From positions 1-64,000 of the forward strand of contig CAIKWE010000036.1 of NCBI GenBank assembly GCA_903831085.1: 64,000 bases of DNA, read 5' to 3'. Within the stretch, counting starts at the first letter, position 1, and each line of letters starts with the position of its first letter. Positions 18,256-24,377 of this stretch are shown here, in pieces. The translations under genes were made by a program, and so were the position numbers. Under the pieces are notes generated by a model that saw nothing but the letters and a program-made list of their open reading frames with translations, did not search any database and was not told the origin of the DNA. Origin of the DNA: an uncultured Verrucomicrobiota bacterium. GTDB lineage: Bacteria > Verrucomicrobiota > Kiritimatiellia > Kiritimatiellales > Tichowtungiaceae.

Positions 18256-19547
18256 ACAGCCTTCTTTCTGAACCGCGCCGTATTCACATGATCGGCATCG
18301 GCGGTATCGGTATGGCGGGTCTGGCTCTGCTTTTGAAAGAGCGCGGCCACCGCGTCACCGGTTGCGACGAGCAGGAAAACCGCCAGACCGCTTGGCTGCG
18401 CGAAAAGGGTATTCCTGTTTTGATCGGGCATGATCAATCTCATCTAACGGATGTCGGCTGGATTATTCGCACCACCGCCGTACCGGACGATCATCCCGAA
18501 GTCGTGAACGCCAAAGTTCCCGTCAGCCGGCGCGGTGAAGTGCTTCCGGCCATCCTGCGCGACCGTTTCACCATCGCGGTCAGCGGTACGCACGGCAAAA
18601 CCACCACGACGTCAATGATCGCGCAGATTCTTGGCTGCGGTTACTGCATCGGCGGCGAAGTTCCCGGCTTTGACGGCGTTGCCAAAGACGGTGAAATTAT
18701 GGTGGTCGAAGCCGATGAGAGCGACGGAACCATCGCTAACTATCATCCCGACATCGCTGTGATCACCAACATCGAATACGACCACATGGAGCACCACGCC
18801 AATGTCGAAGCGTTCGAAGCCTGCTTTAAAACTTTTATCGCCAACACCAAACAGAAAATCGTCTATTGCGCCGAAGATCCCGCCGCCGTGCGGCTCTGCA
18901 CCGGAAACCCGAAGGCCGTCCCGTATCGCTTCGCGCCGCTGAAAGTTTCTCTTCCCGGTCGGCACAATCAGATGAACGCCTGCGCCGCGCTGGAAGTTTG
19001 CCGCTCCCTTCGGTCACTGCCTCGCAATAACGAGGCCTCTCTCGCTTTGCTCGGATCCAAGGGTTGGAAAACCGAAGCGGAAATTGCTCAGGCCATGGCA
19101 AGTCTCAAGCCGGTACGGCGGCGCTTTGAACGGGTTTTTGAAGGCGACTACACGATCATTTCCGACTATGCGCATCATCCGACTGAAATCCGCGCGCTGA
19201 TTCAGACAACACTCGAAACGCTCAAGCCAAAGCGTCTGCTCGGCGTGTTTCAGCCTCACCGCTATACACGCACCAAGGCGCTGATGGACGATTTTCCGCC
19301 CGCGTTCCAAGGGTTGGAAAAACTGTGGCTTCTGCCGGTCTATGCGGCCTCGGAAAAGCCGCTGGCGGGCGGAACCAGCGAGGATTTGATGAACCGGTTT
19401 GCCGGGGATTTTAAAAACCGCATAAAAATTTTCCAAACATTGGAAAAAGTATGGCAGGATATTCGAAGCGAATTGCGCGAGGGCGATGTTCTATTGATTA
19501 TCGGCGCGGGGGACATTGAACAGCTGGCGGAATGGGCGAGACGATGA
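18240..19547 (+). CDS. murC: UDP-N-acetylmuramate--L-alanine ligase
   Basis: IHMIGIGGIGMAGLA; VSGTHGKTTTTSMIA; start trimmed from ORF 18114. Confidence 0.95.
   Translation: MRPQIDSLLSEPRRIHMIGIGGIGMAGLALLLKERGHRVTGCDEQENRQTAWLREKGIPVLIGHDQSHLTDVGWIIRTTAVPDDHPEVVNAKVPVSRRGEVLPAILRDRFTIAVSGTHGKTTTTSMIAQILGCGYCIGGEVPGFDGVAKDGEIMVVEADESDGTIANYHPDIAVITNIEYDHMEHHANVEAFEACFKTFIANTKQKIVYCAEDPAAVRLCTGNPKAVPYRFAPLKVSLPGRHNQMNACAALEVCRSLRSLPRNNEASLALLGSKGWKTEAEIAQAMASLKPVRRRFERVFEGDYTIISDYAHHPTEIRALIQTTLETLKPKRLLGVFQPHRYTRTKALMDDFPPAFQGLEKLWLLPVYAASEKPLAGGTSEDLMNRFAGDFKNRIKIFQTLEKVWQDIRSELREGDVLLIIGAGDIEQLAEWARR
19003..19053. repeat. REP-like palindrome inside murC
   Basis: contains GCCTCG-CAATAA-CGAGGC; encodes SLRSLPRNNEASLALLG. 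Confidence 0.6.
19303..19322. repeat. TTCC-N7-GGAA palindrome in murC
   Basis: TTCCAAGGGTTGGAAAAA; FQGLEK. Confidence 0.85.
19429..19447. repeat. TTCC-N7-GGAA palindrome in murC
   Basis: TTTTCCAAACATTGGAAAA; FQTLEK. Confidence 0.9.
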
Positions 19548-20269
19548 GGTTTGTTTTATACAATATCCGGTACGGGACGGGAGGGAGAAAGCTTCTCTCC
19601 CCGCTCAACGGTTATCTTCGCCATACCGGCAAAAATTTTGAACGCATCACGCAGTTTCTGCACGATTTAAATCCCGATGTGGCGGGACTGGTCGAGGTGG
19701 ATGCCGGTTCCTACCGTTCAGGAAAGATCAATCAGGCCGAAACGATCGCTGAACGGCTGGGGCACTACCATGTATATCGTTCGAAGTACGGCGAAAATTC
19801 ACTGACAAATCATTTCCCGGTGCTCAGTCAGCAGGGCAACGCCTTTGTGGTGCGCGACGACGGGCATAAGGAGACGTTTCATTATTTCGACCACGGCGTG
19901 AAGAAGCTGGTGATTGAGCTCGAAATGGAGAACGTCACCTTTTTCCTGATTCATCTGGCGCTCACTTCACGCCTGCGTCACCGCCAGCTCGGCGACCTGT
20001 ACGATCTGCTCCAGACCGTCAAAAAACCGCACATTGTGGCCGGTGATTTCAACGCGCTCTGGGGCGAGCAGGAGGTGCGACTGTTTCTCGCGGCGACAGG
20101 GCTTAAAAATGCGCATGCGGCCGATTCGCCGACGTTCCCGAGCTGGAAGCCGAAGCGCCACCTTGATTTTATTCTGCACAGCTCCGGCGTTAGCGTGGAG
20201 CGTTGCTGGATGCCGGATGTTCAGTTTTCAGATCACTTGCCGATTGTCTGCGATTTCTCAGTTCACTAG
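19532..20269 (+). CDS. endonuclease/exonuclease/phosphatase family protein
   Basis: MRFVLYNIRYG...GLVEVD...VAGDFNALW...SDHLPIVCDF. Confidence 0.9.
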   Translation: MGETMRFVLYNIRYGTGGRKLLSPLNGYLRHTGKNFERITQFLHDLNPDVAGLVEVDAGSYRSGKINQAETIAERLGHYHVYRSKYGENSLTNHFPVLSQQGNAFVVRDDGHKETFHYFDHGVKKLVIELEMENVTFFLIHLALTSRLRHRQLGDLYDLLQTVKKPHIVAGDFNALWGEQEVRLFLAATGLKNAHAADSPTFPSWKPKRHLDFILHSSGVSVERCWMPDVQFSDHLPIVCDFSVH

Positions 20270-21194: not shown

Positions 21195-22043
21195 ATGGAC
21201 ATGGCGAGAAGACGGAAACCGACGAAAGTTTATTACAGCAAGACCCGGAGCAAGACCGCGAAAAAAATGGTTGTCCGCCGCGGGCTGGTGGTTCTTCTTC
21301 TGACCGCGACCGCGCTGGCGCTGCTGCTCGGGATTTTCCTCGGCCTTAAATATGCTGGTTCGCTTTTTCTTTCCCGTAATCCGAAGTTTGAACTCAAGAA
21401 CATCAACATCACATCCGACGGACGGCTTCCGCCGGAATTTTTCTGCGAACGCGCGGGTCTTAAGGTTGGAGAGAATCTGTTCGCTCTGGATTTTGATATG
21501 CTGCGTAAAAAACTGGAAGAGGTGCCGCTGGTTGAATCGGTTGCCATTGAGCGGAAACTTCCGGATACGCTGAATATTAAGATCATCGAACGCGTTGCGA
21601 TGGCACAGATCCGCTGGAATCCCCGCGCGTTGCCGTTTCTGCTGGACGGCCACGGCGTTATTCTTCCGATGACACGCAGCGGGCAGGCGCTTCCGCTGAT
21701 TGAAGGACTCAAGCTGGAGAAGGTGCGTCCCGGCGACCGGATCGAAAGACCCGGCATCACTCAGTGCCTGGATATTCTTGCCGCCGCCGATCAGCTTGGT
21801 CTCGGCTCACAGGTTGCTTTCGCCAGCTTCGATATCCGCTATCCCGATTTTGTGACCGCTATCGTCAACGGAGAGATCACGGTTCGTTTTCCGCTGCATT
21901 CAGGGCGCGAAAAACTGATCCGGCTGGTCAGCGTTTTGCAGATCGCAAAGGAACAGGGCCGCCGGCTGAAAACCGTTGATTTAACGCCCGACGGACGTAA
22001 TGTGCCGGCAACCGACTACCCCGCAGGAACTACTTCTTTATGA
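21195..22043 (+). CDS. ftsQ: cell division protein FtsQ/DivIB
   Basis: single TM, POTRA-like region, position between ddl and ftsA. Confidence 0.85.
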   Translation: MDMARRRKPTKVYYSKTRSKTAKKMVVRRGLVVLLLTATALALLLGIFLGLKYAGSLFLSRNPKFELKNINITSDGRLPPEFFCERAGLKVGENLFALDFDMLRKKLEEVPLVESVAIERKLPDTLNIKIIERVAMAQIRWNPRALPFLLDGHGVILPMTRSGQALPLIEGLKLEKVRPGDRIERPGITQCLDILAAADQLGLGSQVAFASFDIRYPDFVTAIVNGEITVRFPLHSGREKLIRLVSVLQIAKEQGRRLKTVDLTPDGRNVPATDYPAGTTSL

Positions 22044-23272
22044 CAGCACCTTTTATCACCGCTCTTGAAATCGGCACATCAACCATCAAGGTCCTAATGG
22101 CTGAAGTCCGCGAGGACGGCGGCCTGATGGTGGCCGGGCTCGGCGAATGCGAGTCGCGGGGTGTGCGCAAAGGTGAAATCGTTGAATTCGAAATGGCGCT
22201 CGACGCGGTGCGCCGCGCCATGGAAGCGGCCGAGGCCGCCGCGCACAAATCGATCGGCGAAAGCGTCTATCTCGTCGCTTCCGGCGGGCGGGCTGAAAGC
22301 CTGCTGCATATCGGCGGAATTCCGGTGCTCAACGAATACGAAGAGCCCGGCGGCGAAATCACCCGCGAAGATATTGATCAGGCGCTTGAAGTGGCGCGCA
22401 AAATTCCACTGCCCGATGACCGTATCCGCCTGCACACCCTGCAGCAGAACTTTGAAGTCGACGGCCGCGGGGGCATTGTCAATCCGGAGCGGATGCTGGC
22501 TGAAGAGCTGCGGGTCGGGATGCTGCTCATCCATGGCCAGCGCGCCGTGGTCGAAAATCTGAAAAAGCTGACCGAAAACGTACCTGTGGTCTGCACCGAC
22601 GCCGCGTTCGGCGGTTTCTGCTCCGCGCTGGCGGTTCTCACTCCGGAACAGAAACGCGCCGGGGTCGTGGTCATTGATCTCGGCGGCGGCACAACGGACT
22701 TCATTGTTTACAATGCCGGACTCGTTAAGTTGGCCGGCTCCATTGCCGTCGGCGGCGACCATATCACCGCCGATATTTGCAGCGGATTGAACCTCAACCG
22801 CCGGCAGGCCGAAGCGCTTAAAAAAGAATCGGGCAGTGCGCTCATCAACCGGCTTCAGAGCGATCAGAACATCTCGATTCCTGCCGAAGGCGGTTTCAGC
22901 GGACGGGTTGTGCGCGCCGCGGCGCTGCACACCATTATCAACAGCCGCATGGAAGAGATTTTTAAACTGATCGCCGAAAAGATTGAAGACGACGCGCTGT
23001 CCGGAATGCTTACCGCTGGCGTTATTTTGACCGGCGGCGGCTCGGCTATGGAGGGCATCACCGATCTGGCGCAACAGGTTTTCAACGCGCCCTGTCAGGT
23101 TGGACGCGTTCACGACTGTGTCGGACTTTCCACGAAGCAGGAAGGCGCGCGCTTCGCCGCCGCCATCGGCTGTGTGCGCTATGCCGCCAGTCAGATCAAA
23201 CCGGAGGCACCGATTCGCGCCGCGTGGCGGACATGGCTTTCTAAACTTTGGGGAGGCGGAAGCCATGAGTGA
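22040..23272 (+). CDS. ftsA: cell division protein FtsA
   Basis: ALEIGTSTIKVLMAEV; VVIDLGGGTTDFIVY; GVILTGGGSAMEG. Confidence 0.95.
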   Translation: MTAPFITALEIGTSTIKVLMAEVREDGGLMVAGLGECESRGVRKGEIVEFEMALDAVRRAMEAAEAAAHKSIGESVYLVASGGRAESLLHIGGIPVLNEYEEPGGEITREDIDQALEVARKIPLPDDRIRLHTLQQNFEVDGRGGIVNPERMLAEELRVGMLLIHGQRAVVENLKKLTENVPVVCTDAAFGGFCSALAVLTPEQKRAGVVVIDLGGGTTDFIVYNAGLVKLAGSIAVGGDHITADICSGLNLNRRQAEALKKESGSALINRLQSDQNISIPAEGGFSGRVVRAAALHTIINSRMEEIFKLIAEKIEDDALSGMLTAGVILTGGGSAMEGITDLAQQVFNAPCQVGRVHDCVGLSTKQEGARFAAAIGCVRYAASQIKPEAPIRAAWRTWLSKLWGGGSHE

Positions 23273-24377
23273 GTTACAGAAAAAGATTTTAGTGTTCGGA
23301 CTGGGCGGAGCGGGATGCAACACCTTGGCGCGAATTGCGCCGCGCGCTCCCGAAGGAATGGAATTCGCCGTGATGGATTGCGACTTCCAAACCTTGGAAG
23401 CCTGTAACATTGAAAACCGTCTCGCTGTCGGCAAGGCGCTGACCGACGGCCTGAGCACCGGTGGCGACATCGAAGTCGGCCGTCGCTGTGCGGAGAACTC
23501 CGCCAGCCAGCTTGAAACTCTGTTGAGCGGCGTGGATCTGCTCATGGTTGTCACCGGACTCGGCGGAGGCTTCGGCACCGGCTCTGCGCCCGTTGTCGCC
23601 CGCATGGCCCGCCATCTCGGTTTGACGACGCTGTTTTTCACCGTCCTGCCGTTTCCATTCGAAGGATTGGTGGCGCAGGGTAAGGCGCATAGCGCGGTTC
23701 GCAAGCTGCGCACCTATGCCGACGCCATTGTCCAAATGCCTAACGCGCTGATTCAGCCAGAAGGCGATGTGCTGCTCGAAGACAGCCTGGAACGCAGCAG
23801 CCGCACGCTGGCGGCGGGCGTCATCGGCCTCTGGCGCATGCTGGCCTACACCGGTGTCTGCAATCTCGATTTCTCCTCGCTGCACACCATGCTCAGCTAC
23901 TGCGACGCCTTTTGCCGCTTTGCCTGTGCCACGGCGACCGGCGAAGGCCGTGCCGATGCGCTGATTGATTCACTGCGCACCCATCCGTTAGTTGCAGACA
24001 GCGAGATCTTCGAAAAAGCGCCCGGCATGATTATCGGCATTACCGGCGGCAGTGATCTGAAGCTTTCCGAAGTTCAGCAGATTGCCGAAGCCCTTGCGCC
24101 GAAAGGCGAAGAATGCTGGGTCAAAATAGGCCTTGCGACCGATCCTGCCTTTGCGGGACGGATTTCCGCCATTGTGCTGGCGGCCGAAGCGTGGAAAGAA
24201 CCATTGGTCGATGACGGACGCGGCGGACTCAAGCCGCTGGCTGGCGACGGAAAACAGGGCGAGCTTCCCGGCCTTAAACGTTCACGCACCTTCGGCGGTG
24301 CGGAGCGCACCATCTGGAACGGCGAAGACCTCGACGTACCCACCTATATCCGCCGCAAAATCAAACTCCCGCGCTGA
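23265..24377 (+). CDS. ftsZ: divergent cell division protein FtsZ
   Basis: GLGGAGCNTLARI; GLGGGFGTGSAPVVA (T4 variant); NLDFSSLHTM (T7 variant); C-terminal peptide DLDVPTYIRRK. Confidence 0.9.
   Translation: MSELQKKILVFGLGGAGCNTLARIAPRAPEGMEFAVMDCDFQTLEACNIENRLAVGKALTDGLSTGGDIEVGRRCAENSASQLETLLSGVDLLMVVTGLGGGFGTGSAPVVARMARHLGLTTLFFTVLPFPFEGLVAQGKAHSAVRKLRTYADAIVQMPNALIQPEGDVLLEDSLERSSRTLAAGVIGLWRMLAYTGVCNLDFSSLHTMLSYCDAFCRFACATATGEGRADALIDSLRTHPLVADSEIFEKAPGMIIGITGGSDLKLSEVQQIAEALAPKGEECWVKIGLATDPAFAGRISAIVLAAEAWKEPLVDDGRGGLKPLAGDGKQGELPGLKRSRTFGGAERTIWNGEDLDVPTYIRRKIKLPR

What the first reader, a model, noticed from the sequence alone, without database searches (positions are those of the whole stretch)
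23265..24377. FtsZ with altered T4 and T7 GTPase signatures
The tubulin/FtsZ signature GGGTGTG is GGGFGTG, and the T7 catalytic loop NxDFxD is NLDFSS, losing the second catalytic Asp (D212 in E. coli numbering). Yet the C-terminal FtsA-binding peptide LDVPTYIRRK is canonical and the gene follows ftsQ-ftsA. Predicts weak or absent GTP hydrolysis with retained polymerisation and membrane tethering. One TTCC palindrome also shapes its N-terminal FQTLEA segment.
Basis: partly seen in the sequence, partly recalled or inferred. Interest (0 to 1): 0.65.

Follow-up and report, generated by a model that had tools for sequence, protein, structure and literature searches.

The report
FtsZ with a remodelled GTPase site
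This bacterium's only copy of the cell-division filament protein FtsZ lacks residues thought essential for burning its fuel GTP, and the same kind of loss runs through most of its phylum, so these bacteria may divide with unusually slow FtsZ filaments, or hydrolyse GTP in another way.

Summary
The gene at 23265-24377 encodes a 370-aa FtsZ directly after ftsQ and ftsA. T4 reads GGGFGTG (F at E. coli T108), T7 reads NLDFSS (S at E. coli D212), and the C-terminal peptide is intact. It is the only FtsZ in the genome, folds as FtsZ and is under purifying selection.

The arginine-finger-like residue R142 is also lost (A), as are N43 (D) and the guanine-binding position 186 (S). These changes are not peculiar to this genome. 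Phe at T4 is genus-wide (12 of 13; one Leu). D212 is kept in only 2 of 13 genus members and 0 of 22 members of the sister family. Across 209 genomes of the phylum (69 families) the canonical N-D-D triad survives in 27, whereas 16 of 17 control FtsZs from other phyla keep it and all 17 keep D212. Usually exactly one of D209/D212 is retained (151 of 209), and mutual exclusion persists after correction for ancestry (p about 0.01).

Best reading: a working division FtsZ with a remodelled, probably slow, one-aspartate GTPase site. No activity has been measured. Retained polymerisation is plausible but unproven. The held literature calls Verrucomicrobiota FtsZ divergent but does not remark on T7.

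The parts
23265..24377 (+). ftsZ, 370 aa, sole FtsZ of the genome
   Evidence: AlphaFold mean pLDDT 88.6 and Foldseek to FtsZ crystal structures E 4e-35
23376..23390 (+). T2 loop D-C-D-F-Q (E. coli N43-Q47): N43 to D; D45 and Q47 kept
23562..23582 (+). T4 signature GGGFGTG, F103 = E. coli T108
   Evidence: F in 12 of 13 genus members, L in one
23673..23675 (+). A137 = E. coli R142 (S. aureus R143, arginine-finger-like): lost
   Evidence: V/A/I/T/M throughout the genus
23799..23801 (+). S179 = E. coli N186 / S. aureus D187, guanine-binding position: altered
   Evidence: role of the position from general knowledge of FtsZ structures
23862..23879 (+). T7 synergy loop NLDFSS: N207 and D209 kept, D212 to S
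24330..24374 (+). C-terminal FtsA-binding peptide LDVPTYIRRKIKLPR
22040..23272 (+). ftsA, canonical
   Evidence: TIGR01174 302 bits, above cut-off
21195..22043 (+). ftsQ (POTRA domain)
23385..23399 (+). copy of the TTCCAANNNTTGGAA palindrome inside ftsZ

Best explanation
This is the vertically inherited, functional division FtsZ of a Kiritimatiellales bacterium. It still polymerises at the membrane through FtsA, but its inter-subunit GTPase site has been remodelled. One T7 aspartate (D209, which swings to activate the water in S. aureus FtsZ) remains, while the second (D212) and its bridging-water partner R142 are gone and the T4 Thr is Phe. The most likely result is a slow GTPase, so filaments are more static and turnover is slow or set by partners rather than by fast hydrolysis. 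The remodelling is the local form of a phylum-wide shift to a one-aspartate T7 loop. Shown: sequence, single copy, context, predicted fold, purifying selection, phylum distribution. Inferred: GTP still bound, slow hydrolysis, assembly, slow dynamics.
For: Sole FtsZ. Intact in nearly all relatives, with the tether peptide conserved. dN/dS 0.08-0.22 within the genus. FtsZ fold with confident T-loops. D212, R142 and T108 replaced together across most of the genus. Triad N-D-D in 27 of 209 phylum genomes against 16 of 17 controls. Exactly one of D209/D212 kept in 151 of 209; log odds -2.07, p about 0.01 under independent evolution simulated on the tree, as expected if one acid is needed. E. coli D212 mutants hydrolyse slowly but make filaments and rings (PMC7320174, PMC4383033). 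V. spinosum ftsZ is essential (PMC12283558).
Against: No enzymology was found for any FtsZ of this phylum in the papers held. In S. aureus FtsZ, D213N and R143Q abolish assembly (PMC8936486), so the site may have been rebuilt rather than merely weakened. E. coli D212G does not complement without suppressors (PMC5405962).
Confidence: 0.55

Rival explanations
1. Compensated enzyme: GTP hydrolysis is near normal because other residues (an acid at position 43, Ser/Thr/Cys at 212, a reorganised K+/water shell) replace the lost ones.
For: N43 is D throughout the order. Small polar residues (S/T/C/N) are common at 212 in the genus and order. The loop has kept its length (206 of 209 rows ungapped).
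Against: Many lineages without D212 keep N43 (for example f25 and f52), and A, V, R or H also occur at 212. No coupled substitution survives ancestry correction except the D209/D212 exclusion.
Confidence: 0.25
2. Non-hydrolysing scaffold: FtsZ binds GTP (or another nucleotide) and acts as a static structural filament, turnover being set by FtsA or proteolysis.
For: Position 186 (guanine contact), R142, T108 and D212 are all altered. D212G rings are static (PMC7320174). A few FtsZs in the phylum lack both T7 acids.
Against: D209, D45 and E138 are kept in all f1 and f2 rows that could be scored, and nearly all phylum members keep at least one T7 acid.
Confidence: 0.14
3. Decaying FtsZ on the way to FtsZ-free division, as in Planctomycetota and Chlamydiota.
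For: A few genomes in the phylum have no or very weak FtsZ hits. In the genus FtsZ mostly changes faster than FtsA.
Against: Strong purifying selection, conserved C-terminal peptide, and ftsQ-ftsA-ftsZ order kept. Essential in V. spinosum.
Confidence: 0.04
4. Assembly error or misaligned motif.
For: The window comes from a 60-contig draft genome.
Against: The same kinds of substitution recur in the other genomes of the genus, including separately titled public records. T7 aligns without gaps.
Confidence: 0.01

Closest known systems
Canonical bacterial FtsZ (TIGR00065; E. coli, S. aureus)
   Same: Fold, D45/Q47/E138/N207/D209, FtsZ_C domain, FtsA peptide, ftsQAZ locus
   Different: D212 to S, R142 to A, T108 to F, N43 to D, position 186 to S; scores below the curated cut-off
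E. coli FtsZ D212A / D212G mutants
   Same: Loss of the same T7 aspartate; slow hydrolysis, static filaments (PMC4383033, PMC7320174)
   Different: Natural and lineage-wide, with further substitutions at the same interface; the laboratory mutant needs suppressors to divide cells (PMC5405962)
Ca. Thiosymbion oneisti FtsZ (natural low-GTPase FtsZ, PMC8953583)
   Same: A natural FtsZ with low GTPase
   Different: That FtsZ keeps its catalytic residues; here they are replaced
Verrucomicrobiota FtsZ described as divergent (PMC9871819, PMC2474590) or 'canonical' (PMC1845146)
   Same: Same phylum; GGGTGSG T4 reported for V. spinosum
   Different: In the passages searched, none of these papers remarks on the T7 catalytic residues

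Membership tests
FtsZ (bacterial cell-division tubulin homologue) | Tubulin/FtsZ GTPase domain plus FtsZ_C domain | tested here: met
   PF00091 95 bits, PF12327 29.7 bits, both above cut-off
FtsZ (bacterial cell-division tubulin homologue) | FtsZ tertiary fold | tested here: met
   predicted model, pLDDT 88.6; the 50 best Foldseek hits are all FtsZ, E 4e-35 to 4e-31
FtsZ (bacterial cell-division tubulin homologue) | dcw context with ftsQ-ftsA and C-terminal FtsA-binding peptide | tested here: met
FtsZ (bacterial cell-division tubulin homologue) | NCBIfam TIGR00065 equivalog cut-off (295 bits) | tested here: not met
   188 bits; only 19 of 194 phylum genomes reach it, so the cut-off is too strict for this phylum and is not taken as a defining feature that excludes membership
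Canonical GTPase FtsZ | T7 NxDxxD and T4 GGGTGTG | tested here: not met
   NLDFSS, GGGFGTG
Canonical GTPase FtsZ | Assembly-dependent GTP hydrolysis | not testable with these tools
   needs purified protein

The most novel reading that the evidence does not exclude
Most Verrucomicrobiota (Kiritimatiellia and Lentisphaeria included) divide with an FtsZ that has shifted to a one-aspartate or aspartate-poor T7 loop and works without fast, hydrolysis-driven treadmilling. Here T7 chemistry has been repeatedly lost or exchanged between D209 and D212.
Probability: 0.35. Interest if true: 0.85.

Novelty: new variant of a known kind. Interest (0 to 1): 0.6.

Why it matters
Whether FtsZ must hydrolyse GTP quickly and treadmill in order to divide cells is a long-running question, studied mostly with sick mutants. 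A whole phylum in which the only FtsZ naturally lacks parts of the catalytic triad, in lineages that keep the rest of the ftsQAZ module and in at least one species where ftsZ is essential, offers natural experiments. It also includes canonical and non-canonical sister species within one genus.

Tried and rejected
A hidden second canonical FtsZ: none, even at E 10; an accessory tubulin-like protein exists in three relatives but not here. Coupled loss of N207 with Q47, or D212 with R142: strong by raw counts (p 7e-9 and 0.002) but not significant once ancestry is simulated (p 0.42 and 0.13). Independent-pairs tests had too few informative pairs. Microbacterium FtsZ was frameshifted and left out; a Neisseria record was fetched but not added. 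Pilhofer et al. 2008, the most relevant older paper, is not held, so earlier notice of the T7 change there cannot be excluded. The palindrome as a shaper of the protein: not supported.

Full report
OBSERVATION. The gene at 23265-24377 (+) encodes a 370-residue FtsZ, directly downstream of ddl, ftsQ and ftsA, with murC and murG further up. T4 is GGGFGTG and T7 is NLDFSS, so F103 stands at E. coli T108 and S205 at E. coli D212, while N200 and D202 keep N207 and D209. The C-terminal LDVPTYIRRK is intact. The genome (2.1 Mb, 94.6% complete) holds no other FtsZ or tubulin even at E 10.

WHAT IT IS. Pfam Tubulin and FtsZ_C both exceed their cut-offs. An AlphaFold model from a 71-row alignment has mean pLDDT 88.6, and its best matches are all FtsZ structures at about 27-32% identity. 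Within the genus dN/dS is 0.08-0.22 for ftsZ and 0.05-0.13 for ftsA, so both are under purifying selection, ftsZ somewhat less; dS is near or above 1, so the ratios are rough. The protein is a functional FtsZ ortholog by descent, context and selection.

MORE THAN TWO SITES. The S. aureus filament structures name D46, Q48, R143, N208, D210 and D213 as key interfacial residues and state that all are conserved across species (PMC8936486). Here D46, Q48, N208 and D210 are kept. R143 (A137), which shares a bridging water with D213, is lost as well as D213. N44 is D, and the guanine-contact position 187 is S.

NOT ONE GENOME. In the genus, T4 has F in 12 and L in 1 of 13. D212 is S/T/A/N in 11 and D in only 2, and R142 is V/A/I/T/M in all. 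In the sister family (22 rows) N207 is G in 19, S in 2 and D in 1; D212 is C or S in all; T108 is retained in 21 and L in one. Over 209 genomes and 69 families of the phylum, N-D-D survives in 27; D212 in 81, N207 in 96, D209 in 164. The T7 segment aligns without gaps in 206 of 209. In 17 control FtsZs from Pseudomonadota, Actinomycetota, Bacillota, Spirochaetota, Bacteroidota and Euryarchaeota, counting E. coli, D212, D209 and T108 are invariant and R142 is R or K; N207 is lost only in one plasmid-borne copy (the partial Microbacterium sequence, which also shows NLDFAD, is left out). Named relatives place the group in Kiritimatiellales, with Kiritimatiellae and Lentisphaeria further out. Of 190 phylum genomes with a TIGR00065 match, 184 have exactly one.

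PATTERN. Exactly one acid remains at 209/212 in 151 of 209, two in 50, none in 8 (one of the 8 lacks the region). D209 and D212 avoid joint loss (odds ratio 0.12). Simulating both traits independently on the FtsZ tree gives this log odds or lower in 1% of runs; eight trait pairs were tried, so this is suggestive rather than decisive. The tree was built without the trait columns. Parsimony needs at least 24 changes at D212, 14 at D209 and 23 at N207, so the change happened many times. The other raw associations vanish after correction.

HOW IT PROBABLY WORKS. D210 of S. aureus FtsZ swings to place the catalytic water; D213, with R143, provides the environment (PMC8936486). With D209 kept and D212 and R142 gone, the likely result is slow hydrolysis. 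E. coli D212G has about a tenfold lower GTPase and static vortices (PMC7320174), and D212A makes filaments and extra septa (PMC4383033). But S. aureus D213N does not assemble (PMC8936486), and E. coli D212G divides cells only with suppressors (PMC5405962), so assembly cannot be assumed; these species may carry compensating changes. Essentiality of V. spinosum ftsZ (PMC12283558) argues that FtsZ in this phylum works. V. spinosum could not be identified by name in the data; the family f58, with an FtsZ frame of similar length to the published 673 aa (PMC1845146), shows K/R-G-D, an inference only.

PRIOR KNOWLEDGE. Divergence of Verrucomicrobiota FtsZ is known (PMC9871819, PMC2474590). The passages read do not mention the T7 residues, and V. 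spinosum FtsZ was published as canonical (PMC1845146). Pilhofer 2008 could not be read. Hence: new variant of a known kind.

LIMITS. Controls are few and drawn from plasmid records. The genomes are largely drafts with anonymised taxonomy, the tree is a FastTree tree of divergent proteins, and no biochemical data exist.

Noticed in passing
window, 12 exact sites including 16583, 19305, 19431, 23385, 26439, 46389: Palindrome TTCCAANNNTTGGAA: 12 exact copies in the window with 0 expected, 379 in the genome against 1 for the reversed control. A genome-wide repeat, some copies in coding sequence.
   Followed up: partly
L036 3387-4484, L035, L037 (G010, G013, G020): A separate 366-aa tubulin-superfamily protein, 75-77% identical across two families whose FtsZs are only about 40% identical: probably horizontally moved; absent from the window's genome.
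   Followed up: partly
L038 (G023, single-contig genome): ftsZ split into two frames beside the G-rich T4 codons; probably a sequencing indel.
   Followed up: partly
G326 and G328 (family f58): Two and three TIGR00065 matches; possibly bacterial tubulins BtubA/BtubB beside FtsZ.
   Followed up: no
f10 genomes (L237, L239, L241-L243) and f51 (L244-L246): Extremely divergent FtsZ: T4 reads GGGT-[AS]GA with one residue missing in f10, and T7 is unrecognisable in f51.
   Followed up: no
window 19532-20269: An endonuclease/exonuclease/phosphatase-family gene sits between murC and ddl inside the dcw cluster.
   Followed up: no
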